This document shows positions 15,362 to 60,623 of a stretch of 64,000 nt of DNA, piece after piece. A program made the position numbers and the translations under genes. The stretch comes from Carboxylicivirga sp. M1479 (lineage in GTDB: Bacteria > Bacteroidota > Bacteroidia > Bacteroidales > Marinilabiliaceae). The stretch is from positions 124,001-188,000 of the forward strand of contig NZ_VKDE01000016.1 in assembly GCF_007097485.1 (NCBI RefSeq). The letters run 5' to 3'. Under the pieces are notes generated by a model. It was not told the DNA's origin, did not search any database, and saw nothing but the letters and a program-made list of their open reading frames with translations. Position 1 is the stretch's first letter; each line of letters starts with the position of its first letter.

Positions 15362-15363
15362 TT

Positions 15364-23379: not shown

Positions 23380-23830
23380 GGTCATTAGTTTAATGGCAGC
23401 GTAAATGAGTAGTCGTTATAAGTTAAACATACTGTGTTTTTAAAATAGGTTTTACTCATAAGAAACGAGCCATGAGAACAGTTTCTCACACAGGAGCATG
23501 ATTAATTTTGGCGAGTTCCATGTGGCAATTAAAAACAAAATATAAACACATGAAAACCTATCTATATGAATGCCGTGCTGTTCGGTTCATCAGCCATTGC
23601 AATATAGTGGGGAGCTTAAATACGAATTGTCAATCATTCCCCTCCCTAAATTTAGGCGGGGTGGTATTACTATATTAAAACCACCTCCCCTCGCCAAAGA
23701 CGAGGTACTCCTCCTTAGAAAGGAGGAGAGCTGATTGCCGGCATGTAAAATGTTTTACCAATGATCAACCCTACAACCTAAGACCCATTGACCTAACGAC
23801 CCAATCCCAACCCCTACAAACTAAAAAATC
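23380..23830. repeat. Gene-free spacer with structured element and REP-like hairpins
   Basis: Holds a minus-strand copy of the structured element (23456-23524) and a REP-like hairpin pair near 23685-23735 (CCTCG...CGAGG, then CTCCTCC...GGAGGAG) with CCCTCCCTAAATTTAGGCGGGG before it. Last comes a G-poor GACCTAACGACCC tract from about 23764 to the asnB ATG. No coding potential seen. Confidence 0.6.
23456..23524 (-). ncRNA. Copy 6 of the covarying-hairpin element
   Basis: Reverse-strand copy of the element described at 48218. The central hairpin is TGAGAA-ACTG-TTCTCA, a perfect six-pair stem. The 5' arm CACATGGAAC is intact; the 3' arm GTTTC is followed by TTATG, so the outer stem is interrupted. 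Confidence 0.4.
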
Positions 23831-30402: not shown

Positions 30403-30554
30403 TACCAATTGTTTTTCAAAGTGAGCCTAAGCGAAGCTTTGAAATTACAATGGTAAATGCCGATAGTCTGTCCCGCTCTTTCGGCGGGATATCAATGAAG
30501 AGACTTAGTCAAACGCAGTTTGAGGTAAGGCTCATTTCATTGAACAATCGGAAT
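30402..30554. mobile_element. MITE-like element, type 2, copy A
   Basis: Left end TACCAATTGTTTTTC with AAAGTGAGCCTAA; right end, read inverted, TTCCGATTGTTCAATG with AAATGAGCCTTA. Flanked by TAA on both sides (30400-30402 and 30555-30557). The interior carries CCCGCTCTTTCGGCGGG, a perfect small hairpin. Too short to code for a transposase. Confidence 0.65.
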
Positions 30555-30583
30555 AATTTATTAACCCGTAAAACATTAAGAAA

Positions 30584-31219: not shown

Positions 31220-31337
31220 CAGTGAATTTTGTAGAGGAAGTGGCCATGCTGCTTCCTTTACTTAAATCTTAGAAAAACACTCCATCCGGTGCATCGCACC
31301 TAACACTTAATTATTTAAATCTAAAAATCTATTAACC

Positions 31338-31784: not shown

Positions 31785-31803
31785 AGTCGTGGTACAGGTA
31801 CTT

Positions 31804-31965
31804 ATACCAATTCTATTTTAAAGTGAGCCTTAAATTGTTTTGAATTATTTTAACTTCGACGAGGCGAAAAGTTGAGGCATAGCCGTATCTACGGCGATAT
31901 TTTTCAACGAAGTATAAGGAAAAAAGAGCGTAAGAATAAGGCTCATTTTAATGTAGTATTGGTAT
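31804..31965. mobile_element. MITE-like element, type 2, copy B
   Basis: Terminal inverted repeats of about 28 bases: left TACCAATTCTATTTTAAAGT continuing to GAGCCTTA, and the right end reads TACCAATACTACATTAAAAT inverted, continuing to GAGCCTTA. TTA is duplicated on each side. With copy A at 30402 it brackets the DUF6266/DUF5675 genes. The sequence from here to 32097 shows nothing else. Confidence 0.7.
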
Positions 31966-32097
31966 TATCGCCCAACGATCTAAAATGATAAAGTGAACAA
32001 CCCTGTATGGACATCACCTGTTTCACAACATAAAATAGATGGCCTGTTAATATCAGTATCTTAGTTATCTTCATTATGCCCGAATGATTCTGAGAAT

Positions 32098-33399
32098 TTG
32101 GATCGATGCCTTTTAAAAGCCGCAAAAGCAAGTTGTTACTTCAGCTTGGTAAGTAACTTAAGGGAGGCATTGGCCAGTCAGAGTCTGGTATGGCTTAACC
32201 CAGAACCGATCAAACCCATGTTATCAGATCTACACCTTATTGCGCAGGGTATCTGTCTGCGAAAAAATAATAAATGGAGCGACTGCCGTTCTTTTAATGG
32301 CATCATCAACCTACAGGAGCTATACCACAACGCACAGGAGACCTTGCTTGATTGGCTCAACCAATTAGAGCTTGAGCGAGAATCCTGGTCAACGGTAGCC
32401 CTTCGCTTGAAAAACCTTTGTGGTATAAAATCACGTTTGGACCAAAATATATGGCGCGTTCCCAAAGAAAATGATCAGACCACCATGGTGTGCTTTACCC
32501 ACGATCTGCTTTTTTACCTGATTCTTACACAGCTACTCGATAATGCCAGGCATTATTTTGTTGGTTACTGCCGTTGTCATGAGCATCCTTCCAATAGCCT
32601 GTTACGGCCTTACCTACGCATGAGTAATAAACAGCTACAAACTATAATAGCTCCCTATAGGGCCGATTTTCATTGGCTGGATGACTTACTCAACCCCTTG
32701 CCCGATGAGATGGAACAACTACTGCAATCCTTGGACGAGCTGAAGTCAAGCATGCCGGAAGATTCCCCGCTTGTTGCGTTGATCAACCGTTGGTTATGTG
32801 CTGAGCTGCAACGGCCGGCTACTCGTTTAGAGGAGCAGCAGAGCCTGCGCATCATCAAACAAGTTAAGCACTGTCTGGAGCTTATTCACCTGCACGATCA
32901 GTGGCTCGATCACCGCCAACTGGTCATCAGCATCATGCACTCGCGCCACGACCTCAGCTTTACATTTGAGAATTATCAAGGTATACTCAAGTACCACAAT
33001 GCCCAGCAAAGCATGAACTGCCAGGAGGAACTGGCCCATTGGAAGCAAGCACTAAAAGAACGCAAGCGAAGGCGCAGTAAGTTCTATGGTCCCACATTTC
33101 CCAACCGCAGCGTTTTTAACCATGTAATTACTCAATTGTCGTACCTGGCGCAAGAGCAGCCTTTAGTTCCCGATCCATCGCGCCTACTGGAATGGACTGG
33201 TCATCCCCACCAATATGTACACGCAATGGGCAACCTCATTAGCGATGGATTGTTTCAACTGAATAGTTGCAACGATAGAGCCCCTATTGTACAATACCTC
33301 AGTCAGTTTATAAAAGTTCGCAGAGTTGACAATAAAGGTTTTACCACCCTATCGACCTTACAGACCTATTTTAAAAAAGCACGGACAGGCGATCTGTAG
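32098..33399 (+). CDS. Hypothetical protein, 433 aa
   Basis: Not recognised. A TTG at 32098 is the first usable start in an open frame that begins at 32065; the next in-frame ATG is far inside. The protein is soluble, rich in Leu, Gln and His, and looks alpha-helical, with a basic patch LKERKRRRSKFYG near residues 320-332 and a C-terminal region (HVITQLSYLAQEQP to TLQTYFKKA) that could be a small helical DNA-binding or RteC-like domain. This is a weak impression only. The frame is long and uninterrupted, so the gene is probably real. Confidence 0.6.
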   Translation: MDRCLLKAAKASCYFSLVSNLREALASQSLVWLNPEPIKPMLSDLHLIAQGICLRKNNKWSDCRSFNGIINLQELYHNAQETLLDWLNQLELERESWSTVALRLKNLCGIKSRLDQNIWRVPKENDQTTMVCFTHDLLFYLILTQLLDNARHYFVGYCRCHEHPSNSLLRPYLRMSNKQLQTIIAPYRADFHWLDDLLNPLPDEMEQLLQSLDELKSSMPEDSPLVALINRWLCAELQRPATRLEEQQSLRIIKQVKHCLELIHLHDQWLDHRQLVISIMHSRHDLSFTFENYQGILKYHNAQQSMNCQEELAHWKQALKERKRRRSKFYGPTFPNRSVFNHVITQLSYLAQEQPLVPDPSRLLEWTGHPHQYVHAMGNLISDGLFQLNSCNDRAPIVQYLSQFIKVRRVDNKGFTTLSTLQTYFKKARTGDL

Positions 33400-35851
33400 T
33401 GCAGAAACTTACATTTATAACAAAAAAATTATTGGGAAGTACAAAAGGTATGTTGTTCATTGGAATGCCAGGCCTTGTTATACCACCTCCCCACTCCTTC
33501 GTCATGGTACTCTGTTAATCGTAGCGTCTCGCTACGTTTTTCACCTAGTAGATTTGCTTAGCAGCTTGCCTCACCACTCCTTACTCACCTCTCACCTTCT
33601 TTTGCTCTGCGGTAAATTCAATTCCGTAGGAATAAATCAGTGTTAACCTGCCTAATCTGCGGTTATAAAAGCACCTTGTACTTCCTTTCCTAATGTTCGT
33701 ATTTCCTACAGGGGACAGTTTGTGCCAGAAGTTTGATTTGTGTGCCTTAGGGGTGTTAACAAGTATATACCACCTCCCCACTCCTTTGTTGCGGCTCTCC
33801 TCCTAATATTCTATAGGAGAGCTGATTTGCAGCTTGGTGCAATTCGCATTATTTATAATCTCATTCTTTCCTATTGTAGCTTGACTTAGGCCTGTAAGGC
33901 CGATATGTACTAAGGTAGGTCGTAGGCCTACCGCACGGCATACAATAAATTAGCTCTGAAGGAGCGGCACGTGATGGTCAATCACCTATTCCGGTGCATG
34001 GTAAATACGGCCTGTAATTGCACAGTTTTTATTAACATGATGCATACCTGGGGTTTCACCCCAGGCTACTGATGTTAAAGAACTTTGGCCTTTGATTAGT
34101 AGCATGTAGTTCTCTGTGTTCTCCTTTTACTCTGCGGTAAAACTTTTCCTGTTTTTTCGGTGCATGGTTCTATTGCATAGGTATTAAATTGTGTATTTGC
34201 ACCGATTTTATGCCCGTAACGTAACCCGGGGTGGCGTTGCCCTTACCCCAGGCTATTGATGTGGCAGGCCGTTGGCCAGCTAGTTACAGCTTGCTTATAC
34301 CACCTCCCCACTTCTTCGTCGCAGTACTCTTCCTAAAATTCAGGAGGAGAGCTGATTGGCTGCTTGGTGTAATTCAAAATAACTTGCAAGAGCCTTACTC
34401 TTTTCTGTTGGTAGACTAATTAAGGCCTGTAAGGCCGATATGTATTAAGGTAGGTCACAGGCCTACCCGATGGAATACCATAAATTAGCTCTGAAGGAGC
34501 GGCACGTGGTGGATTATCACCTGTTCCGGTGCATGGCAATGCTGTATGGATAATACGGTCTGTATTTGCACCGATTTAATTCACATAACGTAACCCAGGG
34601 TGGCGTTGCCCTTACCCCGGGCTATTGATGTGGCAGGCCGTTGGCCAGCTAGTTACAGCTTGCTTATACCACCTCCTCACTCCTTTGTCGTGGTACTCCT
34701 CCTAAAATTCAGGAGGAGAGCTGATTGACAGCTTGGTGTAGTCCACATTAATCTGTAATTTGTATTTTCATTATCTCTATTAGTGTTTTGACTAAGGCCT
34801 GTAAGGCCGATAAGTAATAAGGTAGGTCGCAGGCCTACGTTCTCTGTGTTTTCCTTTGCTCTGCGGTTAAACTTTTCCTGTTTTTTCGGTGCATGGTTCT
34901 ATTGCATAGGTATTAAATTGTGTATTTGCACCGTTTTTATGTCCGTAACCTAACCCGGGGTGGCGTTACCCTTACCCCGGGCTATTGATGTGGCAGGCCG
35001 CTGGCCAGCTAGTTACAGCTTGCTTATACCACCTCCCCGCTCCTTTGTCGTGGTACTCCTCCTAAGATTCAGGAGGAGAGTTGATTGGCAGCTTGGTGAA
35101 ATTTGCGTTAACCTGTAAGCCCTATTATCTAATATTGGTAGTTTACCCTAGGCCTGTAAGGTCGATATGTACTAAGGTAGGTCGTAGGCCTACCCAACTC
35201 CATACCATAATTAAGCTTTGAAGGAGCGGCACATGATGGTTAAATACCTATTCCGGTGCATGGTATGGCGGTATAGAAACGCCACCTGTATCTGTACCGT
35301 TTTTATGGGTATGATGTATACCCGGGGTTTCACCCCGGGCTATTGATGTTACAGGCCTTTGACCTTTGATTGACAGCTTGTGCCTCACTGTGTTCTCAGG
35401 TTGCAAAACTCTGTGTTCTTCTTTTGCTCTGCGGTTAAATAAGCGCCGTGATTTTCCTTTCTTAGAGTGCCTTAGGGGTGATAACGGTATTTACACTACC
35501 TCGCCGCTCCTTCGTCGTGGTACTCCTCCTAAAAATCAGGAGGAGAGCTGATTGGTAGCTTGGTGAAATTGAAATTTATATTGTCATTAAAGTTGCCTCA
35601 GTGTCCACTTTAGTTCTGAAGTTAAATTTATTATTTGTCATTACGGTTGACGTCAGTATTCGCATTGTGCAGAAAAAAAGGTGTTGGCATATACTGATGC
35701 TAAAAGTCATAATGTTTTTTGTCTAAATTATAATGAAAGGTTTAAAGATAAATTGTTATTTTTCCATGATATACACTTATTTGAAAAAGGTGTCTTTAAT
35801 ATAAGGATTTTGGAAGTAGAATAATCAGTAAGTTGACTCTTAATAACAAAA
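33400..35851 (+). repeat. Repeat archipelago, segment 3
   Basis: About 2.4 kb without a gene. Contents include a CCACCTCC unit ending in the terminator-like hairpin CGTAGCG-TCT-CGCTACG (33520-33541), an AATCTGC-type tract near 33640, and composite units with CCTGGGG...CCCCAGG at 34047-34065 and CCCGGGG-type hairpins starting at 34225, 34594, 34954 and 35321. There are also CGGTGCA...TGCACCG elements (34158-34204 and others) and several AGGCCTGTAAGGCC modules. The last 280 bases are AT-rich unique sequence and presumably hold the promoter of wecB copy 2. Short frames that recur here are translations of the repeat. Confidence 0.7.
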
Positions 35852-37000
35852 ATGCAAAAAAGTATATTACTCATATTTGGTACACGCCCCGAAGCCATAA
35901 AAATGGCTCCATTGGTTAAAGCCTTAGAAGCTGAAAGTAGTTTTAAGTCAAAAGTCTGTGTTACTGCTCAGCACCGCGAAATGTTGGATCAGGTATTATC
36001 TATATTTGATATTGAACCTGATTATGACTTAAACCTGATGAAAGCTGGTCAGGATTTATACGATATTACGTCTCGTGTTCTATTAGGCTTACGTAGTGTC
36101 TTAGATAACTTTAAACCTGATGTGGTTTTGGTACATGGTGACACAGGCACCAGCACCGCCGCTGCCTTGGCTGCCTTTTACAAGCAGATACCGGTTGGCC
36201 ACATAGAGGCAGGCTTGCGAACCAACGATATCTATTCTCCCTGGCCTGAGGAGATGAATCGTCAGTTAACAGGACGATTAACTACTTTTCATTTTGCACC
36301 TACTCCCTGGTCAAAAGAAAACCTCTTAAAAGAAAATATACATGAAGATAGTATTTGTGTTACGGGCAATACTGTTATTGATGCCCTTCAGTTGGCTTTA
36401 GATAAGATAGAACACTCGGCACAGTTCAAGCAAGATATTCTGTCCTTGTTAGAGCGCTATATACCAAATATTGAAAGTGAGCTAGGTAGCAAAAAGTTAG
36501 TTCTAATAACCGGGCATCGTCGTGAGAATTTTGGAGAAGGTTTTGTACACATGTGTGAGGCCATCAAAGAAATTGCGACTCAGCAATCAAAATCACTCAT
36601 TATCTATCCGGTACACTTAAATCCCAATGTACAAAAGCCGGTTAATGAAATACTGGGTGATATTGATAATGTGCATTTAATTCCACCTTTAGAATATTTG
36701 CCATTTATCTATTTAATGAGTCAATCTCATTTTGTATTGACCGATAGCGGTGGTATTCAAGAGGAAGCACCAGGCTTGGGCAAACCCGTACTCGTCATGC
36801 GCGATACCACCGAACGCCCAGAGGCTGTGGAAGCCGGCACAGTGAAGTTGGTAGGCACCAATAAGGATCTGATTATTAAAGAAGCATTAGCGCTCTTAAA
36901 TAAGCAAGAGGTATACGATCAAATGTCAAAGGCACATAACCCTTATGGCGATGGCGAGGCCTGTGAACGGATAATTAAGTTTTTGAAGGAGAGGTTGTAG
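35852..37000 (+). CDS. wecB: UDP-N-acetylglucosamine 2-epimerase (non-hydrolysing), copy 2
   Basis: 382 aa with the same motifs as copy 1 ([49 protein letters not shown]). Differences from copy 1 cluster in the first 35 residues and near residues 85-95 and 190-210. ATG start. Here the gene stands outside the main locus with its own upstream region, so it may supply UDP-ManNAc under separate control. Confidence 0.92.
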
Positions 37001-37229
37001 TTTTCAATCCCCCGACATAAAATAATCTATTCAAAAATAAATAACCTACCCCCTTTTCTAAGGGGGATATTTTACTTTATTCTAGTCCAGTATATTGATT
37101 TTGATATATAATACTAATAGTTTCTGGAGGAAGTAAGTGCTTTCCCCCTTCCCGAAGTGTCGGGACACGTGGAGAAGGGGGTGTCAAAAAAATATTTAAA
37201 TAATACATAAGTATTTGGGGGATTGAAAA
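37001..37229. repeat. Palindromic C-run/G-run spacer upstream of DUF559 copy 2
   Basis: Nearly identical to 14734-14962: outer arms TTTTCAATCCCCC and GGGGGATTGAAAA, inner palindromes CCCCCTTTTCTAAGGGGG and CCCCCTTCCC...GAAGGGGG. Confidence 0.7.
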
Positions 37230-37625
37230 ATGAAAGATTCGCATTACAACAACAAGCTAAAGGACTTTGCGAGGGCACTGCGTAATGATTCGACCAATGG
37301 TGAAATTATTTTATGGAAAGAGGCACTTAGAGCTAGTAAAATGTATGGCTACCAGTTTAATCGACAGTTTGCAATTGATAACTACATAGTTGATTTTGTT
37401 TGTCGAAAATTGAGACTTATCATCGAGGTTGATGGTTATTCACATCAGTTTAAGACAGGAAAAGATAAGCTTAGAGATAATAATTTAAAGCAACTAGGAT
37501 ATCAAGTCCTACGAATTGATGAATATGATATAAAAAAAGACCTGAACAATGTTATTCGAGTTATTGAAACAATTGTTGAGGAACGTGAGAATATAATTGC
37601 CCCAAATAGTAATAACTTTGAATAA
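37230..37625 (+). CDS. DUF559 endonuclease-domain protein, copy 2 (intact)
   Basis: 131 aa with an intact ATG. The helical N-terminus KLKDFARALRNDSTNGEIILW leads into the nuclease-like core: YQFNRQFAIDNYIVDFVCRK supplies an acidic residue, and LIIEVDGYSHQ supplies the E-x-D pair of a PD-(D/E)XK-like fold. It is related to Vsr/MTES_1575-type domains. The biological role of DUF559 proteins is unknown. Palindromic C-run/G-run sequences frame the gene in both copies. Confidence 0.8.
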   Translation: MKDSHYNNKLKDFARALRNDSTNGEIILWKEALRASKMYGYQFNRQFAIDNYIVDFVCRKLRLIIEVDGYSHQFKTGKDKLRDNNLKQLGYQVLRIDEYDIKKDLNNVIRVIETIVEERENIIAPNSNNFE

Positions 37626-37717
37626 TAATAATGCACAGTACTTTTCCCCTTTGGAGAAAGGGGGTATTTAAATAGCAATTATAAATATGTACCCGATAGG
37701 GGAATTGAATAATAAAA
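37626..37717. repeat. Palindromic spacer downstream of DUF559 copy 2
   Basis: Carries CTTTTCCCCTTTGGAGAAAGG and GGGGAATTGAATAA as at 15364-15449. Confidence 0.55.
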
Positions 37718-38920
37718 ATGCAAACACCAAAAGTATCAATCATAGGCATGGGCTATATTGGCCTGCCAACAGCCGCATTAATAGCCAATAAACAAATTGA
37801 AGTTAATGGTTATGACATTAACCCTCATGTGATAGAAATCATCAATAAGGGAGAAATACACATAATTGAACCAGGTTTACAAGAGATGGTTAAGAAAGGT
37901 GTTAAAGAGGGCTTTTTAAAGGCCAGCAGCCAATTACAAGAGGCAGATGTATACCTGATAGTGGTGCCCACCCCATTTAAAGGCAATAATGAACCAGATA
38001 TATCGTTTGTGGAAGCTGCCACACGCAATGTTCTTCCTTTATTAAAGGAAGGTGATTTATATATCATTGAATCCACTTCACCCGTGATGACTACTGAGAA
38101 AATGGGGCAACTCATTGCTAGTGAAAGACCTGAATTAGTAGGCAAAATACACATAGCCTATTGTCCTGAACGGGTATTGCCCGGTAAAGCACTGGAAGAA
38201 ATGGTGGTAAATGATAGAGCCATAGGTGGTGTTGATGATAAAGCCACTCAAAAGGCTTGTGAATTTTACAGTTTGTTTGTAAATGGAGAATTACACCGAA
38301 CCAATGCCCGTACAGCTGAAATGTGTAAGCTGGTGGAAAATTCCTCACGTGATGTGCAGATTGCCTTTGCCAATGAGTTATCCATTATATGTGATAAAGC
38401 CAGTATTAATGTGTGGGAATTGATTGAATTGGCCAATAAGCACCCACGAGTTAACATTTTGCAACCCGGATGTGGTGTTGGTGGTCACTGTATTGCCGTT
38501 GACCCCTGGTTTATCGTAAGCGACTACCCCGAGCAAGCACATGTAATTCGTCAGGCACGAGAGATTAACGATTACAAAGCCGACTGGTGTGTGGAGAAAA
38601 CCTTAAAAACGGCTTTGGTATTTGAAGTGAAACATGGCCGTCAGCCAGTAATTGCTTGTATGGGATTAGCTTTTAAACCAAATATTGACGATTTACGAGA
38701 GTCGCCAGCTAAATACATTGCTTCTAAAATTGTAGCAGAAGCACGTGGCGAAGTACTAGTGGTTGAACCACATATTCATGAACATGCTAGTTTTAGCTTA
38801 ACTGCTCAAGAGGATGCCATTGAAAAGGCTGATATCATCGTTTGGCTGGTACGTCATACTGATTTTCTTGATAATAAAACAGGTAAGCTTGAATTAGATT
38901 TTTGCGGTGTCAGAAAGTAA
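37718..38920 (+). CDS. wecC: UDP-N-acetyl-D-mannosamine dehydrogenase, copy 2
   Basis: 400 aa, very close to copy 1, with the NAD site IIGMGYIGLPTAALIA and the catalytic Cys in QPGCGVGGHCIAVDPW. Only the last few residues differ clearly (CGVRK against CGIYR). It is followed by a strong terminator at 38997, so wecB-DUF559-wecC copy 2 looks like a self-contained transcription unit. Confidence 0.92.
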   Translation: MQTPKVSIIGMGYIGLPTAALIANKQIEVNGYDINPHVIEIINKGEIHIIEPGLQEMVKKGVKEGFLKASSQLQEADVYLIVVPTPFKGNNEPDISFVEAATRNVLPLLKEGDLYIIESTSPVMTTEKMGQLIASERPELVGKIHIAYCPERVLPGKALEEMVVNDRAIGGVDDKATQKACEFYSLFVNGELHRTNARTAEMCKLVENSSRDVQIAFANELSIICDKASINVWELIELANKHPRVNILQPGCGVGGHCIAVDPWFIVSDYPEQAHVIRQAREINDYKADWCVEKTLKTALVFEVKHGRQPVIACMGLAFKPNIDDLRESPAKYIASKIVAEARGEVLVVEPHIHEHASFSLTAQEDAIEKADIIVWLVRHTDFLDNKTGKLELDFCGVRK

Positions 38921-38996
38921 GCTCTTATAGTAAATTAGCAGATTTTCTCCATTCTCCATGTATAGAGCCACTTGAAAAAAACTTATTATATTTATT

Positions 38997-39050
38997 ACGG
39001 ATGACATCTATTGAAGCAGGACGCCAATATAGATGTCATCCGTTTTTTTT
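38997..39050 (+). terminator. Intrinsic terminator after wecC copy 2
   Basis: A perfect 15-pair stem ACGGATGACATCTAT/ATAGATGTCATCCGT with a 17-base loop, followed by eight T. Part of the arm (ATAGATGTCATCCG) recurs alone at about 40813 inside a repeat unit. The remaining sequence up to 39339 is AT-rich with no gene. Confidence 0.85.
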
Positions 39051-39339
39051 ACAGTATTTAGTCTCTGCAAGAAAACTCATGTTTTTCTCAAGCGCTTGAA
39101 TGGAAAAGTTAAATTTCAAGGCTTGGCCTTTTTGAAAATCAAAGAGTTTACTATTGTAAATGACTGTTTTCAAAAAGGGCGTAACGAAGAATTATAAATC
39201 ACGAATACTTCTAAAAGCATAACAAAGCATGATTAAATTGGACTTTTCGAGCAAGCACTATTTACTTGTTTTCAACAAATCAGGTGAATAAGAGTTATAT
39301 AAAGAGTATGTTTTTTCATGATAAAATAATAATATTGTA

Positions 39340-40488
39340 TTGATAGTTGTGCATTTACTTTTACTCACATATCGTTGGCTCATTCGCCCTTGCTGCATCA
39401 GCATTTTTATGCTTGCTATAAGCTTAACTGCCCAGTCGCAAGATAGCACCAATGTATTTGTGAAAACCCTGCATAGCATTGATTCATTGGTGACCGAATC
39501 ATTAAGTTCCGAAGGTGGTATTATTCCGGCTCCCATGTTTAATCCTACAATGGGAACAGGTATTGCCGTACTACCAGTATATGTCTATCGTTTGAAAGGT
39601 GTGCATCCCGAAACCAACCCTTCCACCTCCCAGGGTATTTTGTTTTTTAATTTGGCAGGGAACTTTTTAGTGGGTGCTAAGCAAACCTTATATTTTAACC
39701 GTAACAAATATTGGTTAGATGTTTATGCTGGCTACTCATCCATGAATTTTAAGCATTTTTACAATAATGGAGAAGATCAGGAAGAAGTACAGTTTGATGG
39801 TTTCATCTCTAGTATGTCCTTTGCTTTTAAGGTGAAGAATAATTTTTTTATTGGTCCCATGATGAGCAATAACTACCTGCGGGAGGAATTGCCCGACCGC
39901 TATAATCCCTTAAGAGTTAGTGAAGAGTATTATTGGTACCATGTGCCAGGTGTTAAGCTAGCATTTGATAGTCGTGATAACCTCTTTTACCCGGAGTCAG
40001 GTTGGTTCAATACCCTGACTTATGAAACAATGATCCATAACCCTGCCAATAATTTCAATTTCGATAAAGTTACTTTTGGGCTAGCCAATTATCAAGGTAT
40101 CAGTCAGAAGCGCGATATGTTAATTGCCTCGCGCCTATTCAGCCAATTAGGAATGGGTTTACTTCCTTTGCACGAGATGGCTTCTCCAGGTGCCTCACCA
40201 GTACTAAGGGGTTATATCACCGGTAACTACCTGAACTCGTCAATGGTGACCGTGCAAACCGAGTTGAGGTGGATGTACTCCGAAAAATGGGGCTGTGTTG
40301 GTTTTATGGGTTATGGATGGTTATTTGATGAACCACGTACTGCCCGAGATGGTATTACGCTCCCCTCCATTGGTGCAGGTATACGCTATCGCATCTTCCC
40401 TGAATTTAAAATAAACCTGGGCTTTGACGTTGCTGTGGGAAGAGATGGTAGCGCCAATGTGTACTTAAAAATGTCGGAGTCCTTTTAA
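39340..40488 (+). CDS. Outer-membrane beta-barrel, BamA/TamA C-terminal (surface antigen D15) type
   Basis: 382 aa. A TTG start gives a signal-peptide-like N-terminus (LTYRWLIRPCCISIFMLAIS, then LTAQSQD). The mature part is rich in aromatic-alternating beta strands and ends in Phe. SPVLRGYITGN carries the LRGY motif that corresponds to the conserved loop-6 (V/I)RG(F/Y) of Omp85 barrels, and SRDNLFYPESGWF matches the D15 strand motif with D..N..YP..G. It has a barrel only, no POTRA domains. Probable outer-membrane protein; role unknown. Confidence 0.75.
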   Translation: MIVVHLLLLTYRWLIRPCCISIFMLAISLTAQSQDSTNVFVKTLHSIDSLVTESLSSEGGIIPAPMFNPTMGTGIAVLPVYVYRLKGVHPETNPSTSQGILFFNLAGNFLVGAKQTLYFNRNKYWLDVYAGYSSMNFKHFYNNGEDQEEVQFDGFISSMSFAFKVKNNFFIGPMMSNNYLREELPDRYNPLRVSEEYYWYHVPGVKLAFDSRDNLFYPESGWFNTLTYETMIHNPANNFNFDKVTFGLANYQGISQKRDMLIASRLFSQLGMGLLPLHEMASPGASPVLRGYITGNYLNSSMVTVQTELRWMYSEKWGCVGFMGYGWLFDEPRTARDGITLPSIGAGIRYRIFPEFKINLGFDVAVGRDGSANVYLKMSESF

Positions 40489-41329
40489 GTTTTTCTTCTC
40501 AGTTCCTATTCTTGTCTTTTAAGAACTGTTTATACCAGGTGTTTTATTTAAATGGTTTCAAGGGTGTTAATTTCCAAGTATACCACCTCCCCACTCCTTT
40601 GTCGTGGTACTCCTTCTAAAACTCAGGAGGAGAGTTGATTGGCAGCTTGGTGCAATCCGAATTAAATCATAATCTTATTCTTTTCTATTGGTAGTTTACC
40701 ATAGGCCTGTAAGGCCGATATGTATTAAGGTAGGTCGCAGGCCTACCCTACACCATACCATAAATTAGCTCTGAAAGTGCGGCACGTAATGGTTATTCAC
40801 CTATTGCTTACATAGATGTCATCCGTTCTCCTTTGCTCTGTGGTTAAACTTTTCCTGTTTTTTCGGTGCAGGTTCTATTGCATAGGTATTAAAATGTGTA
40901 TTTGCACCGATTTTATGCCCGTAACGTAACCCGGGGTGGCGTTGCCCTTACCCCGGGCTATTGATGTGGCAGGCCGCTGGCCAGCTAAGTGCAGCTTGCT
41001 TATACCACCTCCCCACTCCTTTGTAGTGGTACTTCTCCTAAGGTTCAGGAGGAGAGTTGATTAACAGCACGGTGTAGTCCATACTAACCTGCAAGGCATA
41101 TTATCTCTTATTGCTAGTTTGACTTAGGCCTGTAAGGCCGATATGTATTAAGGTAGGTCGCAGGCCTACCCTACACCATACCATAAATTAGCTCTGAAGG
41201 AGCGGCACGTAATGGTTAATCACCTATTTCGGTGCATGGTAATGCAGTAATGGTGGTTAGGTCTGTATTTGCACCGGTTTTATGGGTATGATGTATAACC
41301 TGAGGTTGCACCCCAGGCTATTAACGTTA

Positions 41330-41431
41330 TACCATTTGTATTTCATAATGTCCAGGTATAATGCCGTTACATAATCAACGTGGCTTTAGAAATAAAATGC
41401 ACTAAAGGCATATTTTGATTAGTAAACGGTT
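41330..41431. mobile_element. MITE-like element, type 1, copy a
   Basis: 102 bases from TACCATTTGTATTTC to AGTAAACGGTT, inserted into a composite repeat unit at CTATTAACG|TTA|CAGGCC. TTA is present on both sides. The last base is T instead of the usual A. Confidence 0.75.
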
Positions 41432-41779
41432 TTACAGGCCTTTGGCCTTTGATTGGCAGCTTCTAGTTCTCTGTGTTCTTCTTAGTTCTGAGGTAATTCC
41501 AAATCATGTGCTTCATCTAACCTCTTTATTCTCACTACTCTCCTCTTTTTCTTAAGTGTTCTATTTTTGCTCTGTGGTTAAACTTTTCCTATTTTTTCGG
41601 TGCATGGTTCTATTGCATAGGTATTAAATTGTCTGTTTGCACCGATTTTATGCCCGCACCGTATCCCGGGGTGGCGTTGCCCTTACCCCCGGGCTATTGA
41701 TGTGGCAGGCCGCTGGCCAGCTAGTTGCAGCTTGCTTATTTATAGGTAGTATTTCACCCTTACCCTCTGCGCCCTTTTA

Positions 41780-41881
41780 TACCATTTGTATTTCATAATG
41801 CGCTGGTATAATGCCGTAACATCATCAACGTGTCTTTAGAAATGGAATGCACTAAAGGCGCATTTTGATGAGTAAACGGTA
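41780..41881. mobile_element. MITE-like element, type 1, copy b
   Basis: 102 bases, TACCATTTGTATTTC to AGTAAACGGTA, flanked by TTA on both sides. It differs from copies a and c at scattered positions (for example CGC for TCC near base 22) and so is an older or separate insertion. Confidence 0.78.
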
Positions 41882-42609
41882 TTAATAACAAGCACCACTC
41901 GAAACAGGGTTTCGAACTATTGAAAGTCAGTGATAGGAATCAATGTTATGCAATTGGAACGAAGTGGAAATCGTGAAGACCTATAAAAACTTACACATCT
42001 GAATCAATGGCGACCTTGGAAAAGGTAAGCCTGAAACAATAAATCCATCTCTGGTGCATAGTAATCACCTCTTTCAATAAGGTTTGCCTTCTTTTTAAAA
42101 GAAAGTGCCAGCCCGGCACAAGGGCAGAATAGAGATACTTTTAAACCTAGGCTTACTTATTATCACAAAATCAAATATACCACCTCCCTGCTTCTTCGTC
42201 GCAGTACTCCTCCTAAAATTCAGGAGGAGATTGATTGGCAGCTTGTGAGCTCTGTGTTCTCCTTTTGCTCTGCGGTAATTTGTTATACCACCTCCCCACT
42301 CCTTTGTTGTGGTACTCCTCCTAAAATCCAGGAGGAGAGTTGATTGGCAGCTTGGTGCAATCCGTATTAAATCATAATCTTATTCTTTTCTATTGGTAGT
42401 TTGACTTAGGCCTGTAAGGCCGAAATGTATTAAGGTAGGTCGCAGGCCTACCCTACACCATACCATAAATTAGCTCTGAAGGAGCGGCACGTGGTGGATT
42501 ATCACCTGTTCCGGTGCATGGTAGGGCCGTTTAGATACGCCCAACTGTATTTGCACCTTTTTTATGGGTATGATGTATAACATGGGTGCCCCCCAGGCTA
42601 TTAACGTTA

Positions 42610-42711
42610 TACCATTTGTATTTCATAATGTCCAGGTATGATGCCGTTACATAATCAACGTGGCTTTAGAAATAAAATGCACTAAAGGCATATTTTGATT
42701 AGTAAACGGTA
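42610..42711. mobile_element. MITE-like element, type 1, copy c
   Basis: 102 bases, almost identical to copy a, inserted at the same point of another composite repeat unit (AACG|TTA|...|TTA|CAGGCC). The uninterrupted site is seen at about 35345 (GATG|TTA|CAGGCC), so insertion and 3-base duplication can be read directly. Confidence 0.82.
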
Positions 42712-42828
42712 TTACAGGCCTTTGACATTTGATTGGCAGCTTTAAAGTCTCTGTGCTCTCATATTGAAAAAACGCACTCTCTACCAGAGCCAAAGGCGTA
42801 CATAAACAGTTAAGTTCTCATGAAAGAC

Positions 42829-43464
42829 CTAACGTATGAAATTTGTCCAGGCTTTCTTTTCCATAGCCGGTAAAGCTTCTTCTTTTTTAAAGCTGTTCAC
42901 TGCCTTGAGCAACCAGGCCATGTTGTTACCCAATACACGGGCTATCTGTACGCCTTCCTCATCGAGCTGCACATCTCCCGGCTTAGTGCCATGTACCACA
43001 TTCCAATAGTTGGCCGACGGTAAAAATAGTTCACTGTATTGCAGGTAGTTATAAATGGTATTAATGGCTGGCATACCACCCGTTCGGCGAACAGCAACAA
43101 TGCCGGCTCCCACCTTATGGCGAAACAATCCACCATTGGCTCCCGCCACATAAAAGGCACGGTCTAAAAACGCTTTCATGGTACCTCCAATATCAGCATA
43201 ATGCACAGGGGCGCCAAAGAGTAGGCCATCGGCCTGTTTCATTTTTTGAATCAAAGGATTCACATCATCATCAACGATAATACACCGCTCATCACGATTT
43301 TTGACGCAGGCATTACAGGCTGTGCACCCCTGTATCTTTTTATGCCCAATGCTCACGATTTCAGTGTCAATACCTGCTTTATTGAGCTGCTCGCAGATGA
43401 TGGAGAGTGCTAAATAGCTATTACCTTTTTTATGAGGACTTCCGTTGATGGCAATTACATTCAT
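42829..43464 (-). CDS. Flavodoxin-like NAD(P)H-dependent FMN reductase (iron-sulfur flavoprotein type)
   Basis: 211 aa. FMN-binding N-terminus INGSPHKKGNSYLAL, a cysteine motif CTACNACVKNRDERC as in iron-sulfur flavoproteins and related reductases, and the second flavin-contact region GLLFGAPVHYADIGGTMKAF. Members shuttle electrons or reduce quinones and other small molecules. Cytoplasmic. The substrate cannot be told from sequence. It lies next to an oxidoreductase gene on the same strand, with repeat DNA downstream. Confidence 0.85.
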   Translation of the reverse strand: MNVIAINGSPHKKGNSYLALSIICEQLNKAGIDTEIVSIGHKKIQGCTACNACVKNRDERCIIVDDDVNPLIQKMKQADGLLFGAPVHYADIGGTMKAFLDRAFYVAGANGGLFRHKVGAGIVAVRRTGGMPAINTIYNYLQYSELFLPSANYWNVVHGTKPGDVQLDEEGVQIARVLGNNMAWLLKAVNSFKKEEALPAMEKKAWTNFIR

Positions 43465-43551
43465 GAGTTTATTATTTTAATTAGTTACCTGAATACAAGT
43501 TCAAATTATATTATGATCGATTCCATGGTGTTTATGCTCGTTTTCAATTCC

Positions 43552-44544
43552 TTATTTTTGATAAAAATCCTGTACAATCTTTTGCATCACTCTATTAGTA
43601 CGAATCGCTGTTTCGCCGGTGCTAACACATGATCCAATACCCTGAAGTGATTCAACGACCTGCTTAATCAGGTTGTATTGAATATTCTCGGGATTGAGAT
43701 AAGGAAATTCAAGGTGCCCCGCATCGGTATGCAAAGAAATAGGTGTATGAGCAAATGCTGAAAAAACAATTCGCCCTTTAGTACCAACTACCTCAATAGT
43801 ATCCTCCTCGGTGTGTTCATTGCTGACAAAAGACCAGATGCCATTGCCCACCACGCCACTCTCAAACTGCATAGAGGCACTGACCGTATCTTCAACGTCG
43901 TAGTAACCACCCCTGTTGGCAGCCACCCCAAAAGCATTTTTTACCGGACCAAATACATAATCCAAAAAATCCAGTTGATGGGAGGCCAAATCAAAAAAGA
44001 TACCTCCACCGGATAGCTCGGCCTGCAAGCGCCAAATATTGTGTAAAGCATCTTTTTCATATGACTTCGCGGGTCGTATAAGGCGCATATTAACGTATAA
44101 TGTCTGCCCTATTACTCCAGTGTCGATTAATTCCTTGACTTTTAAAAAGCCTGGTAAAGTACGCCTGTAATAGGCGATGAATAATGGTACTCTAGTTGAT
44201 CGACTAACAGCTAACATTTGTTCTGCCTGTGCGGCATTGGCAGCCATGGGTTTCTCAACGTAGACAGGTTTGCCTGCTTCCATGCATCGAATGGCATACT
44301 CGGCATGTGAGCCAGGTGGCGTGGCTATGTATATGGCATTGATATCCGGATTGTTAATAACATCTTCTGCTTGATTGCTCCAGTGCGGAATTTTATGGCG
44401 ATTGGCATATGATTTAGCTTTTTCTCCATCTCTTCGCATGGCCATGTGCAAACTACTGCCCTCTACTTTATTAAAAGCTGGCCCGCTCTTCACTTCGGTC
44501 ACATTACCGCAACCAATGATGCCCCACTTGATGCGTTTTAACAT
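43552..44544 (-). CDS. Gfo/Idh/MocA family oxidoreductase
   Basis: About 330 aa from the ATG at 44544; the open frame extends 29 codons further but the family N-terminus is KRIKWGIIGCGNVTEVK. NAD-binding GIIGCGNV, then AIYIATPPGSHAEYA and the EKP motif in GKPVYVEKPMAANAAQA. The C-terminal domain has GGGIFFDLASHQLDFLDYVFG. These enzymes oxidise or reduce sugars, inositols and related compounds. Substrate unknown. It is co-directional with the flavoprotein gene, 87 bases upstream of it. Confidence 0.87.
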   Translation of the reverse strand: MLKRIKWGIIGCGNVTEVKSGPAFNKVEGSSLHMAMRRDGEKAKSYANRHKIPHWSNQAEDVINNPDINAIYIATPPGSHAEYAIRCMEAGKPVYVEKPMAANAAQAEQMLAVSRSTRVPLFIAYYRRTLPGFLKVKELIDTGVIGQTLYVNMRLIRPAKSYEKDALHNIWRLQAELSGGGIFFDLASHQLDFLDYVFGPVKNAFGVAANRGGYYDVEDTVSASMQFESGVVGNGIWSFVSNEHTEEDTIEVVGTKGRIVFSAFAHTPISLHTDAGHLEFPYLNPENIQYNLIKQVVESLQGIGSCVSTGETAIRTNRVMQKIVQDFYQK

Positions 44545-46688
44545 AGTTTTAATATTAATTTTTAATGAATGACAATGGATTCTTCTACTTAATGAATCGG
44601 TCTGTTGATCCAGAACCGTGAAACTTCTCACCTAACTAATGTACTGAATTATTCATAAAGGGTGCAAACAAAATTGTTTAAGGAACGATATTAGAGCATG
44701 GTTTATGTTTATCCGGGGATTACACCCCTAAAGGCCTTTGGCCTTTGATTGGCAGCTTATGAGTATCTGTGTTCTCCTTTGTTATGCGGTAAACTTTTCC
44801 TGTTTTTTCGGTGCATGGTTCTATTGCATAGGTATTAAATTGTGTGTTTGCACCGATTTTATGCCGTTAACGTAACCCGGGGTGGCCTTGCCTTACCCTG
44901 GGCTATTGATGTGGCAGGCCGCTGGCCAGCTAGTTACAGCTTGCTTATACCACCTCCCTGCTTCTTCGTCGCAGTATTCCTCCTAAAATCGAGGATGAGA
45001 GTTGATTGGCAGCTTGGTGCAATTTGCATTAACTTACTAACATTATTATCTATTGTAGCTTGTATTCCAAAGGCCTGTAAGGCCGATATGTATTAAGGTA
45101 GGTCGCAGGCTATTGATGTGGCAGGCCGCTGGCCAGCTAAGTGCAGCTTGCTTATACCACCTCCCCACTCCTTCGTCGCAGTACTCTTTTAAGCGTAGCG
45201 TCTCGCTACGTTTTATACCTAGTAGATTTGCTTAGCAGCTTGCCTCACTACTCCTTACTCACCTCTCACCTCTTTTTGCTTTGCGGTAAATACAATATTC
45301 CGCAGGAATAAATCAGTATTAATCAGCGCAATCTGTGGTTTAATAAGCACCACGTTCTTCCTTTTCTAGTTTGGCTTCATCCTCTTCCGCGGACAGTTTG
45401 TACGATATGTAATATTTGTATGGTTTCTGAGGTGTTAATTTTCAATTATACCACCTCCCTGCTTCTTCGTCGCAGTACTCCTCCTAAAATCGAGGATGAG
45501 AGTTGATTGACAGCTTGGTGCAATTTGCATTAACTTACTAACATTATTATCTATTGTAGCTTGTATTCCAAAGGCCTGTAAGGCCGATATGTATTAAGGT
45601 AGGTCGCAGGCCTACCCCACACCATACTATAAATTAGCTCTGAAAGAGTGGCACGTGATGGATTATCACCTATTCCGGTGCATGGTATTGCAGTATGGAT
45701 AATATGGCTTGTATTTGCACCGTTTTTATTGGCGTACCGGATACCTGGGGGTGCCCCCCAGGCTATTAATGTTTTAGGCCTTTGGCCTTTGATTGGCAGA
45801 TTGTGAGGCTCTGTGTTCTCCTTTGTTATGCGGTAAACTTTTCCTGTTTTTTCGGTGCATGGTTCTATTGCATAGGTATTAAATTGTGTATTTGCACCGA
45901 TTTTATGCCCGTAACGTAACCCGGGGTGGCGTTGCCCTTACCCCGGGCTATTGATGTGGCAGGCCGCTGGCCAGCTAAGTGCAGCTTGCTTATACCACCT
46001 CCCTGCTTCTTCGTCGCAGTATTCCTCCTAAAATCGAGGATGAGAGTTGATTGGCAGCTTGGTGTAATTTGCATTAACTTACTAACATTATTATCTATTG
46101 TAGCTAGTATTCTAAAGGCCTGTAAGGCCGATATGTATTAAGGTAGGTCGCAGGCCTACCCAACACCATACTATAAATTAGCTCTGACGGAGCGATACGT
46201 AGTGGATAATAACCTAATCCGGTGCATGGTAATGCTGTAAGGATAATACGGACTGTAATTGCACCGTTTTTATTGGCGTACCGGATACCTGGGGGTGCCC
46301 CCCAGGCTATTAATGTTTTAGGCCTTTGGCCTTTGATTGGCAGCTTGTGAGTCTCTGTGTTCCTTTTATTTGCGGTTAAATAAGCACCGTGTCCTACAAC
46401 CCTTTTCTCAAAACTCACCACTCAACTCCTTTTGCTCAGCGGTAAATATAATATTCCGCAGGAATAAATCAGCGTAATATGCAGTTAAATAAGAACCATA
46501 TTCTTCCTTTCCTAGTGTGGCTTTATCCACTTCAAGGAACGGTTTATACCACCTCCCTGCTCCTTCGTTGTGGTACTCCTCCTAAAAAAGTCAGGAGGAG
46601 AGTTGATATGCTACTTGGTTTTTTTAATCCCATTCGATTGTTCACACGATCAAAAGTTTTATTTTTATTGCCTAAACTGAATTGAACG
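44545..46688 (+). repeat. Repeat archipelago, segment 5
   Basis: No gene. A degraded unit near 44700; CCCGGGG-type hairpins near 44876, 45745, 45920 and 46290 (the 45745 and 46290 copies use CCTGGGG...CCCCAGG); CTGC...GCAG/CCTCC units near 44945, 45450 and 45995; a terminator-like CGTAGCG-TCT-CGCTACG hairpin (45194-45214); and AATCTG-type tracts near 45330. The predicted short proteins that recur in this segment on both strands are translations of the repeat units. The last unit ends about 80 bases before the phosphoesterase gene. Confidence 0.7.
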
Positions 46689-47717: not shown

Positions 47718-48191
47718 TTATTGTTTCTTGGTAAAAAAGGCTACTACAGCAGCGGTTACCGCTCCCATCCTAATCGCACCAATCATACTTTGCTTAATAT
47801 ATGAATTGAGGTTAAAGAATTGTTCTGCAGCTTCTTGAGTCATGGTTTCCTGCTCAACAGTGTAAGCAATAATGTTCGTAAAATAATCGGGTGATAGGTA
47901 AACATGAGTCAGGTATTGCCCAACAGGACTTAGTAGAGAAACAATAACAGCAATGACCAAACCAGCCAAGAAACCCTCGGTCCAACTCATGACTCCACCC
48001 TGCCATTTTCGCTTATCCAACAAGGCCAATACATAAATAATGATGGCTGGAATGGCAAAAAAGTTGGTGAGTATATGGTGTCTGTCAATGCGTTCGTCGT
48101 GTAAACCAATTGATTTTTCAAAGACTGTCCATAGTAATATGGCGGCAAAAAAGATGATCCCCCATTTTAATTCAATTGCAATTTTTTTCAT
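47718..48191 (-). CDS. DUF4199 family membrane protein
   Basis: 157 aa with four hydrophobic segments: about residues 9-27 (WGIIFFAAILLWTVF), 43-60, 73-97 (GFLAGLVIAVIVSLLSPVG) and 138-154. The loop before the last segment and the pattern MSWTEGFLAGLVIAV match DUF4199, a Bacteroidota membrane family of unknown function. Upstream lies the four-copy structured element array, facing away from this gene. Confidence 0.78.
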   Translation of the reverse strand: MKKIAIELKWGIIFFAAILLWTVFEKSIGLHDERIDRHHILTNFFAIPAIIIYVLALLDKRKWQGGVMSWTEGFLAGLVIAVIVSLLSPVGQYLTHVYLSPDYFTNIIAYTVEQETMTQEAAEQFFNLNSYIKQSMIGAIRMGAVTAAVVAFFTKKQ

Positions 48192-48217
48192 GTGTTCGTA
48201 ATTTTGTTATTTATTGC

Positions 48218-48285
48218 CACATGGAACTCACCAAAATTAACCATGTTCTTGTGTGAGAAACTGTACTCATGGCTCGTTTCATGTG
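48218..48285 (+). ncRNA. Covarying-hairpin element, copy 1
   Basis: 68 bases. Outer stem CACATGGAAC/GTTTCATGTG (ten pairs, one G-U), inner stem CCATG/CATGG, central hairpin TGAG-AAACTGTA-CTCA. The G-U pair only works if this strand is the RNA. Could instead be a DNA-level palindrome. Confidence 0.45.
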
Positions 48286-48306
48286 TTTAAATTTTGTTTT
48301 TTATTG

Positions 48307-48375
48307 CTACATGGAACTCGCCAAAATCAATCATGCTCTTGTGTGAGAACTTATTCTCATGGCTCGTTTCATATG
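48307..48375 (+). ncRNA. Covarying-hairpin element, copy 2
   Basis: Outer stem TACATGGAAC/GTTTCATATG with one mismatch, inner stem TCATG/CATGG (a U-G pair replaces C-G), central hairpin TGAGAA-CTTA-TTCTCA (six pairs). Confidence 0.45.
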
Positions 48376-48397
48376 ATTATAATTTACTTTCATTTGC

Positions 48398-48477
48398 CAT
48401 ATGGAACTCTCAAGTAAATTTTATCATCCCACTGTGTGAAAATTTGGATACTCAAATTTACATGGTCGTTTCATGTG
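48398..48477 (+). ncRNA. Covarying-hairpin element, copy 3 (variant II)
   Basis: Outer stem CATATGGAAC/GTTTCATGTG (two G-U pairs). The central hairpin is AAATTTG-GATACT-CAAATTT, completely different in sequence from copies 1, 2, 4 and 6 but still a perfect seven-pair stem. Confidence 0.45.
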
Positions 48478-48522
48478 TTTAAATTTTGTTTTTATTGTCA
48501 CTACTTGTCCCGATTTATCGGG

Positions 48523-48587
48523 ATGGAACTCACCAAAATTAACCATGCTCCTGTGTGAGAAACAGCTCTCATAGCTTGTTGCGTGTG
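48523..48587 (+). ncRNA. Covarying-hairpin element, copy 4
   Basis: Central hairpin TGAGA-AACAGC-TCTCA is perfect; the 3' outer arm is degraded (GTTGCGT). A small palindrome TCCCGATTTATCGGGA lies just before the 5' arm. Confidence 0.4.
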
Positions 48588-49085: not shown

Positions 49086-49976
49086 TTATTTAAGTAAAGC
49101 CGCCATCTGTGCCGCTTTTTCCTCCATTTTAAGACGTCGGTAAGAAACACTCAGGCAATTGATAATAGCCTTATCCTTGGGTGACATGGCGTGCGCCTTT
49201 TCAAGGTACGGCAATGCTTTATGGTATCCTTTCGCTATCTCCTCCATTTTTTTTGTGGAGTTATGATAGTCTACGCGAGTAGGGTTTTTCATAGCTTCGT
49301 AACGCTTGGTTTCCTTGCTATACAAGTAATCCGTTTGTTTAAAGTAAATCACACCCAGCTTTTTGATACTGTTCTTGTGATTGGTGCGCAAAGTCAATAC
49401 TTTCTCCAACTCAGCAGTTGCCTCTGTATATTTTTTCATACGCTCGTACGATGATCCCAAGAGGTAATGGTAATTATAGTTACCTGGTTCGTTGGCAATG
49501 GCCGTTGACAAACAGCTAACCGCCTTTTCGTACTGTGCTGAATTAAAATACAGGTATCCCAGTTTTTTGGTGAACTCAGCATTTCTTTCCGCGTACTTTT
49601 CCTTGCCAGCCAATAATTCCTTTTCGGCATCGCTAAAATTCTTAACTCCTGCGTAAGCATCGCCAAAAGCCAGATACAGATCAGCTTCGTCGTAAGCATT
49701 ATTTCTGGCCTTAGTTAGCAAATCCACTGCCTTGGAATACTTTTTTGCTTTAGCATAGTTATGGCCTGCCTTAAAATAGGAAAATGCGTCAGCAGATCCA
49801 TTTGCTTCATAAATGGCAGCCGCTTGCTCATACAATTCGGCAGCTGCCAGGTATTGCATCCTGCTCTCTTGAATAATGGCATCACTCTTAAGTACATCAG
49901 CATTTTGAGCCAATGCCGTTCCGATGCCCACCAGAGTGAACATCATCAATACAAATAATTGTTTCATCTGTTTCAT
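49086..49976 (-). CDS. Secreted tetratricopeptide-repeat protein
   Basis: 296 aa. Signal peptide QLFVLMMFTLVGIGTALAQ at the N-terminus (a second ATG nine bases in is an equally good start). The mature part is about seven TPR-like helical hairpins, for example AELYEQAAAIYEANGSADAF, YSKAVDLLTKARNNAYDEA, YEKAVSCLSTAIANEPGNYN and YTEATAELEKVLTLRTNHK. Probably periplasmic or surface-associated, acting as a protein-interaction scaffold. Partner unknown. A type II copy of the structured element lies directly upstream on the opposite strand. Confidence 0.83.
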   Translation of the reverse strand: MKQMKQLFVLMMFTLVGIGTALAQNADVLKSDAIIQESRMQYLAAAELYEQAAAIYEANGSADAFSYFKAGHNYAKAKKYSKAVDLLTKARNNAYDEADLYLAFGDAYAGVKNFSDAEKELLAGKEKYAERNAEFTKKLGYLYFNSAQYEKAVSCLSTAIANEPGNYNYHYLLGSSYERMKKYTEATAELEKVLTLRTNHKNSIKKLGVIYFKQTDYLYSKETKRYEAMKNPTRVDYHNSTKKMEEIAKGYHKALPYLEKAHAMSPKDKAIINCLSVSYRRLKMEEKAAQMAALLK

Positions 49977-49992
49977 TTAATTTTCTTTTTGT

Positions 49993-50071
49993 CAGATGGA
50001 ACTCTCAAGTAAATTTCATCATCCGCCTGTGTTCAATTTGGATAATCAAATTTACATGGTCGTTTCATGTT
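49993..50071 (+). ncRNA. Covarying-hairpin element, copy 5 (variant II)
   Basis: Upstream of, and antisense to, the leader of the TPR gene. ATGGAAC/GTTTCAT outer stem, central hairpin AATTTG-GATAAT-CAAATT (six pairs). Shares the CTCTCAAGTAAATTT segment with copy 3. Confidence 0.42.
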
Positions 50072-60283: not shown

Positions 60284-60356
60284 GACTCAGTAGCTCAGCT
60301 GGTAGAGCAACGCCCTTTTAAGGCGTGGGTCCAGGGTTCGAATCCCTGCTGAGTCA
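60284..60356 (+). tRNA. tRNA-Lys (anticodon UUU)
   Basis: 73 nt cloverleaf: acceptor stem GACTCAG/CTGAGTC, D-arm GCTC-AGCTGGTAGA-GC, anticodon arm ACGCC-CTTTTAA-GGCGT, T-arm CAGGG-TTCGAAT-CCCTG, discriminator A. The anticodon TTT reads Lys codons. The 3' CCA is not encoded. Confidence 0.96.
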
Positions 60357-60393: not shown

Positions 60394-60460
60394 GTATCCA
60401 TATGTTTCGATCTTCTTCCACTACTAAAGATAATAATGGTTTATTAGGGTTCTAATGTAA

Positions 60461-60562
60461 TACCGTTTACGAATCAAAATGGGCCTTTAGTGCATTCCAT
60501 TTCTTAAGACACGTTGATTGTATTAAGGCAATATACTAGCGGATTATGAAATATAAATGGTA
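60461..60562. mobile_element. MITE-like element, type 1, copy d (inverted)
   Basis: Same 102-base element as at 41330, 41780 and 42610 but in the opposite orientation and more diverged; flanked by TAA on both sides, the complement of the TTA seen at the other copies. The rest of 60394-60674 holds only the palindromes listed below. Confidence 0.75.
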
Positions 60563-60623
60563 TAAGGGCGTTGAATTAAAAATAGCGTATTTATCAGAGA
60601 AGTAGTGTCATAATTTATTTGAC

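What the first reader, a model, noticed from the sequence alone, without database searches (positions are those of the whole stretch)
48218..48587. Tandem array of a small element with covarying hairpin: candidate undescribed structured RNA
Six copies in the window (48218, 48307, 48398, 48523, 49993 on plus; 23456-23524 on minus). All keep ATGGAACTC at one end and, where intact, GTTTCATG at the other, which pair as an outer stem. The central hairpin is kept while its sequence changes completely: TGAGAA/TTCTCA, TGAGA/TCTCA, AAATTTG/CAAATTT, AATTTG/CAAATT. An inner CCATG/CATGG stem changes to TCATG/CATGG. The wobble pairs (G-U, U-G) work on only one strand, so that strand is probably the RNA. 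In every case it faces away from the nearest gene start.
Basis: seen in the sequence. Interest (0 to 1): 0.75.

Follow-up and report, generated by a model that had tools for sequence, protein, structure and literature searches.

The report
Mini mobile elements inserted at start codons
These repeats are probably not a free-standing RNA gene but tiny mobile DNA elements, about 90-115 bases long, that have spread through one order of Bacteroidota bacteria and sit exactly against gene start codons or against each other, probably moved by RNA-guided IS110-type transposases.

Summary
The six repeats are real (ATGGAACTC six times, 0.42 expected), but the unit is larger than described. It starts right after a CAT that is the start codon of a divergent gene, and ends at the next GTTTCAT. 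Of 111 units sampled in this genome, 50 abut the start codon of an ORF of at least 56 aa (all MK or MN), 28 another unit, 12 an IS110-type element (IS-A), 9 a second one (IS-B), 1 a contig end, 11 something else. Relatives have empty sites: no unit in 10 of 10 loci of the TPR-gene orthologue and in 12 of 13 loci of the gene beside the array. Units occur in 14 of 14 genus genomes and 27 of 149 in the order. IS-A has unit-like ends; IS-B sits at unit junctions. The base after CAT covaries with an internal base (107 of 131 pairs, shuffled maximum 66). Wobble pairs show no strand bias, folding is weak, and Rfam has no match. Best reading: a MITE-like mobile element with a start-codon target. What moves it is not proven.

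The parts
48189..48191 (-). Start codon of the 157-aa gene 47718-48191 (reads CAT on plus), left edge of the array
   Evidence: the same gene begins MKKIA in 9 relatives read
48192..48282 (+). Unit 1, A form
48283..48372 (+). Unit 2, A form
48373..48474 (+). Unit 3, B form
48475..48584 (+). Unit 4, A form with an inserted CCCGATTTATCGGG hairpin; its right end is decayed (GTTGCGT)
49968..50068 (+). Unit 5, B form, inserted at the start codon (49965-49967) of the TPR-protein gene listed as 49086-49976
   Evidence: empty in 10 of 10 relatives with a clear orthologue
23460..23549 (-). Unit 6, A form, next to an ATG that opens only a 42-aa frame

Best explanation
The repeats are a family of very small non-autonomous mobile elements (MITE-like, without ordinary terminal inverted repeats). 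Each copy was inserted at an ATGAA(A)(C) sequence and that sequence is present on both sides, so the gene's start codon and first codons survive and the element becomes part of the region just upstream of the gene. Because the outer end recreates ATGAAAC, further copies can land at the same point, which builds head-to-tail arrays. The most likely movers are IS110-type (DEDD, RNA-guided) transposases: IS-A in this genome has both ends like a unit. A second IS110-type element, IS-B, uses the unit junction as its own landing site. Shown: repeat family, start-codon position, empty sites in relatives, arrays of abutting units, covariation of the end base with an internal base, positions of IS-A and IS-B. 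Inferred: that IS-A (or a relative) moves the units in trans, that a guide RNA sets the target, and that the new leader is tolerated because the unit's end next to the gene is A-rich like leaders of this phylum (the last point recalled).
For: 111 sampled units: 50 at start codons of ORFs of at least 56 aa, 28 at another unit, 12 at IS-A, 9 at IS-B, 1 contig end, 11 other. Among ATGAA sites of the window outside the inside of ORFs of at least 100 aa, 21 of 66 are starts; 50 of 59 is far above that (p = 6e-17; not a random sample). In relatives' loci 30 of 44 units are at gene starts. Empty sites: 10 of 10 relatives at the TPR gene, 12 of 13 at the array gene. IS-A: in L065 it lies between two units; its tnp-side 50 nt are identical in 9 of 12 copies and one other version in 3 of 12, while the following units differ, so this unit-like end travels with it; its far end starts GT(A/G)TTTATAATTTTGTT as units do and follows a unit at all 3 places seen. 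Both IS-A and IS-B proteins match PF01548 and PF02371.
Against: IS-A's protein (99-aa query, E <= 1e-15) was found in no other of 149 order genomes, although 26 of the others have units, so the mover elsewhere is open. IS-A and units could both simply be at home at the same target. IS-A has no clear subterminal inverted repeats by reading. The only internal full-length IS-A copy (L065) is broken by assembly Ns and a repeat. Excess of start codons over other ATGAA sites is not explained by the target sequence alone.
Confidence: 0.65

Rival explanations
1. The units are mobile, but moved by something else; IS-A and IS-B are both only IS110-type elements that use the unit junction as a landing site, as others use REPs.
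For: IS-B does this: all 16 IS-B ends are followed by NTGTTTA, 11 of 16 by an exact ATGGAACTC within 75 nt, 4 more by a decayed unit by reading, 1 (L049) by no unit seen; its far end follows a unit at all 5 distinct own-genome places found. IS110 elements are known to target REPs (PMC1525189, passages), and QMITE2 of Coxiella is a hot spot for IS1111 (PMC5896051, passages). Units occur in 26 order genomes where IS-A's protein was not found at the strict limit.
Against: IS-A's unit-like end stays with IS-A while the neighbours differ. An IS-A-like end (CATGGATGTTTCAT) also precedes units at 3 contig ends of the distant genome G104 (L235, L236, L238).
Confidence: 0.25
2. A structured RNA transcribed from the plus strand, away from the gene.
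For: One covarying pair (107 of 131 Watson-Crick, shuffled maximum 66), kept in relatives (34 of 39), an inner hairpin in two forms, and a 10-nt stretch CANATGGAAC that could pair with GTTTCATNTG.
Against: No strand bias of wobble pairs (16 against 25; 4 against 7 at the covarying pair); weak folding on both strands; no compensatory pair by RNAalifold; slid controls match most inner-hairpin pairs; no Rfam family. Empty sites show that the copies are insertions.
Confidence: 0.06
3. REP-like elements moved by a Y1 (IS200/IS605 or RAYT) transposase, with hairpins and guide pairing at single-stranded ends.
For: Insertion right after a short fixed sequence, hairpins near both ends and internal complements to the end sequence resemble that family (recalled). 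The genome has 5 Y1 genes.
Against: The unit model finds nothing (E up to 10) in the loci of the 5 Y1 genes, about 1.5 kb on each side.
Confidence: 0.04

Closest known systems
IS110/IS1111-family elements with bridge RNA or seekRNA (PMC11208160, passages; PMC11187229, passages and the Discussion)
   Same: Short fixed target, fixed orientation, target-like sequence at the end; IS-A and IS-B carry DEDD_Tnp_IS110 and Transposase_20 domains; IS-A's non-coding stretch repeats its own terminus (11 nt).
   Different: The units have no transposase gene; no guide RNA was shown; the target is a start codon.
Bacterial MITEs (review PMC10969869, passages), QMITE2 of Coxiella (PMC5896051, passages)
   Same: Short, gene-free, many copies, upstream or downstream of genes; serve as landing sites for IS110/IS1111-type elements.
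   Different: No classical terminal inverted repeats here; strict start-codon position and tandem arrays; the QMITE2 passages describe 3' regions and variable direct repeats.
REP elements as IS targets (PMC1525189, passages)
   Same: Extragenic palindromic repeats that IS110-type elements enter at one fixed point.
   Different: REPs are shorter; no link to Y1 genes was found here.

Membership tests
MITE of an IS110-type element | Short, no long ORF, many dispersed copies | tested here: met
   90-115 nt, at least 150 model matches in the own genome (capped)
MITE of an IS110-type element | Copies are insertions (empty sites known) | tested here: met
MITE of an IS110-type element | Both ends shared with an autonomous element | tested here: inconclusive
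   tnp-side end clearly alike; far end alike over about 17-30 nt by reading; partner not found in other carrier genomes at E <= 1e-15
MITE of an IS110-type element | Moved in trans by that transposase | not testable with these tools
   Needs an experiment
IS1111 group | Subterminal inverted repeats of 11-13 bp, 7 bp left and 3 bp right extensions (PMC11187229) | tested here: inconclusive
   Extensions ATGAAAC (7) and CAN (3) fit by reading, but no 11-13 bp subterminal repeat was seen; no systematic test was run
IS200/IS605 or REP-RAYT | Unit ends next to a Y1 transposase gene | tested here: not met
   0 of 5 Y1 loci
Known Rfam family | Match at the gathering score | tested here: not met
   Only a tRNA in the whole window; sub-threshold chance matches
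Independent plus-strand structured RNA | Strand-biased wobble pairs and folding | tested here: not met

The most novel reading that the evidence does not exclude
Each unit carries its own guide: the internal CANATGGAAC is complementary to GTTTCAT|NTG, the junction of the target and the unit's own end, and N changes on both sides together. A 90-nt unit would then be a self-addressed minimal IS110-type element, ends plus a seekRNA-sized guide, that borrows only the transposase and is addressed to a very common gene start, ATGAAA.
Probability: 0.12. Interest if true: 0.85.

Novelty: new variant of a known kind. Interest (0 to 1): 0.55.

Why it matters
An element that lands on start codons without removing them changes the upstream region of dozens of genes in one genome, can stack in arrays, and is in turn the landing site of another IS110-type element. 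If an RNA guide sets this address, it is a natural case of a guide aimed at gene starts, and the covarying end and inner bases give a direct test. The searches made here listed no description of it; that library lacks preprints and most subscription journals.

Tried and rejected
Plus-strand RNA: tested by wobble bias, folding z-scores, RNAalifold and Rfam; not supported.

IS200/IS605 and RAYT: no unit near the 5 Y1 genes. Integron attC sites: considered from memory only, not searched.

Promoter retention: the motif TAnnTTTG (Bacteroidota -7 box, recalled) is not enriched beyond the arrays: 8 of 78 flanks towards the gene, 11 of 78 on the other strand, shuffled mean 6.6, maximum 14. So a general claim that native promoters read through the units is not supported. 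Only at the TPR gene is a TATTTTTG seen by reading, also in several relatives.

Megablast of one window stretch against plasmids: no match.

A first count of the end-base pair included truncated hits and was replaced (131 units whose left end could be placed). The hairpin count parsed 89 regions (66 distinct) out of 140 distinct units; the rest were not parsed.

Sampling: the 111 units come from loci fetched because of the 17-mer, IS-end or listed model matches, not at random; a recount found no duplicates or partial hits among them. Classes rest on simple rules. For the p-value, two of the 11 'other' units (in L019 and L164) were set aside because they follow unit-like ends, hence 50 of 59. 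In one search, 45 of 83 diverse units were folded, the first ones in the list.

Full report
What is there. ATGGAACTC occurs six times in the window where 0.42 are expected, at the places given. Alignment of the six copies and then of 37 copies from the same genome shows that the conserved stretch starts about 30 nt earlier than described. It runs from a CAT, through (G/A/C)TGTTTA.., CA(C/T/G)ATGGAACTC, ATCATnCtCCTGTGTG, an inner hairpin and CATGGnTC, to GTTTCAT. The four array copies at 48192-48584 abut without gaps. There are two main right-hand forms, A and B, and left and right modules occur in different combinations (for example L019 and L022). Some copies carry an extra CCCGATTTATCGGG hairpin just before ATGG.

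A widespread family. An exact 17-base piece occurs 33 times in the own genome, with none for the reversed control. A pattern scan of named genomes gave 13 stretches, from Carboxylicivirga marina, Plebeiobacterium sediminum, Natronoflexus pectinivorans and several Prolixibacteraceae, Bacteroidales and Bacteroidetes assemblies.

Copies sit on start codons or on other copies. Of 111 distinct units sampled in the own genome, 50 abut the start codon of an ORF (shortest 56 aa, all MK or MN), 28 follow another unit, 12 follow IS-A, 9 follow IS-B, 1 is at a contig end and 11 are none of these by the rules used. In relatives' loci 30 of 44 are at gene starts, 8 after a unit, 2 at contig ends and 4 other. 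Among ATGAA sites of the window that are not inside ORFs of 100 aa or more, 21 of 66 are starts, so 50 of 59 is more than target sequence plus avoidance of genes would give (p = 6e-17; the sample was not random). In named genomes the abutting genes include ones whose first residues look to me like IspF and TrkA (recalled).

Empty sites. Clear orthologues of the gene at 49086-49976 were found in 10 relatives (L098-L107); none of these loci holds a unit by the profile used. In nine of them the leader could be read straight into an MKQL or MKH start; in the own genome a similar leader is followed by ATGAAAC, the unit, and then ATGAAACAA again. For the gene at 47718-48191, 14 of 14 genomes have it, and units lie in the fetched loci of only two: the own genome with four and G004 with one, which sits at the same codon but has a different left end. 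So the copies are insertions directed to the ATGAA of the start codon, which is then present on both sides.

The insertion elements. About a third of the 33 exact copies lie within 300 bases of contig ends. One contig-end family is an IS110-type element, IS-A (PF01548 and PF02371). In L065 the order is gene, unit B, IS-A, unit B, unit A. The IS-A end beside its transposase start resembles the right half of a B unit and is found by the unit models; its last 50 nt are identical in 9 of 12 copies and of one other version in 3 of 12, whereas the units that follow differ. All 12 copies are followed by a unit. The far end begins GT(A/G)TTTATAATTTTGTT, as many units do, and follows a unit at the 3 places seen. 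The non-coding stretch of IS-A repeats GAAACATCCAT, its own terminus, and TACATGAAAC, its other end plus target (by reading), as a guide RNA might; this is a lead, not a test. The other family, IS-B, is also IS110-type: a relative with a frameshifted transposase lies in G005 between a start codon and a unit. In the own genome all 16 IS-B ends are followed by NTGTTTA, 11 of 16 by an exact ATGGAACTC within 75 nt, 4 more by a decayed unit by reading, and 1 by no unit that I could see; its far end follows a unit's right end at all 5 distinct places found. IS-B thus uses the unit junction as a landing site, as IS110 elements use REPs (PMC1525189, passages) and IS1111 uses QMITE2 (PMC5896051, passages).

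Structure. The first base after CAT and the matching inner base form Watson-Crick pairs in 107 of 131 units (G-C, A-T, C-G), against a shuffled mean of 47.5 and a maximum of 66; in relatives 34 of 39. Relatedness of copies inflates such a count. The inner hairpin is present in both forms; pairs 4 and 7-10 beat shuffled partners, but slid partners do as well or nearly so at most of them, and the other pairs hardly vary. G-U pairs are not commoner on the plus strand than their mirror (16 against 25; 4 against 7 at the covarying pair). Folding is only modestly better than shuffles on either strand, and RNAalifold finds no compensatory pair. The pairing is better read as part of the element's mobility, or of a leader, than as a plus-strand RNA.

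How it probably works. Inferred: an IS110-type transposase guided by an RNA joins the element to ATGAAAC; the copy of ATGAAAC at the gene side keeps the start and the A-rich end of the unit serves as the new leader, so insertions are tolerated. The displaced upstream ATGAAAC opens a short frame that ends within the unit or soon after (for example 13, 16, 23 or 27 codons). Arrays arise because each unit offers the target again. Against this: IS-A's protein was found in no other genome of the order sample at the strict limit used, so the mover elsewhere is open; and the Bacteroidota promoter motif is not enriched beyond the arrays.

Known or new. No Rfam family is reached at its gathering score. 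Literature searches listed related themes but, in the titles and abstract starts seen, no start-codon-directed IS110 MITE. Papers were seen as listings or passages, and for PMC11187229 also the Discussion.

Noticed in passing
window 27300-46600: Dense mosaic of other intergenic repeat families, up to 16 copies each, with conserved short palindromes such as AGGCCTGTAAGGCCGATAT.
   Followed up: no
window 13606-16652 and 35873-38920: Long direct repeats of 89-94% identity over the 300 nt shown, apparently duplicated genes.
   Followed up: no
window 60456-60565: A 110-nt repeat beside the tRNA at 60284-60356, with inverted copies near 41327, 41777 and 42607.
   Followed up: no
units, e.g. window 48500-48525; L208, L206: A CCCGATTTATCGGG-type hairpin, in other genera CCCGAGTACTCGGG and others, is inserted at one point of many units, just before ATGG.
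   Followed up: partly
L232-L247 (G104 contig ends): Several contig ends are inverted joins of two units, which look like assembly artefacts; three others show an IS-A-like end before a unit.
   Followed up: partly
L223 1964-2066: Genome G004 has a single unit with a different left end at the same start codon where the window has four, which could be an independent hit.
   Followed up: partly
L079/L049 and L021: Sequences beside IS-B or a unit that end like units but differ inside, perhaps a third form.
   Followed up: no
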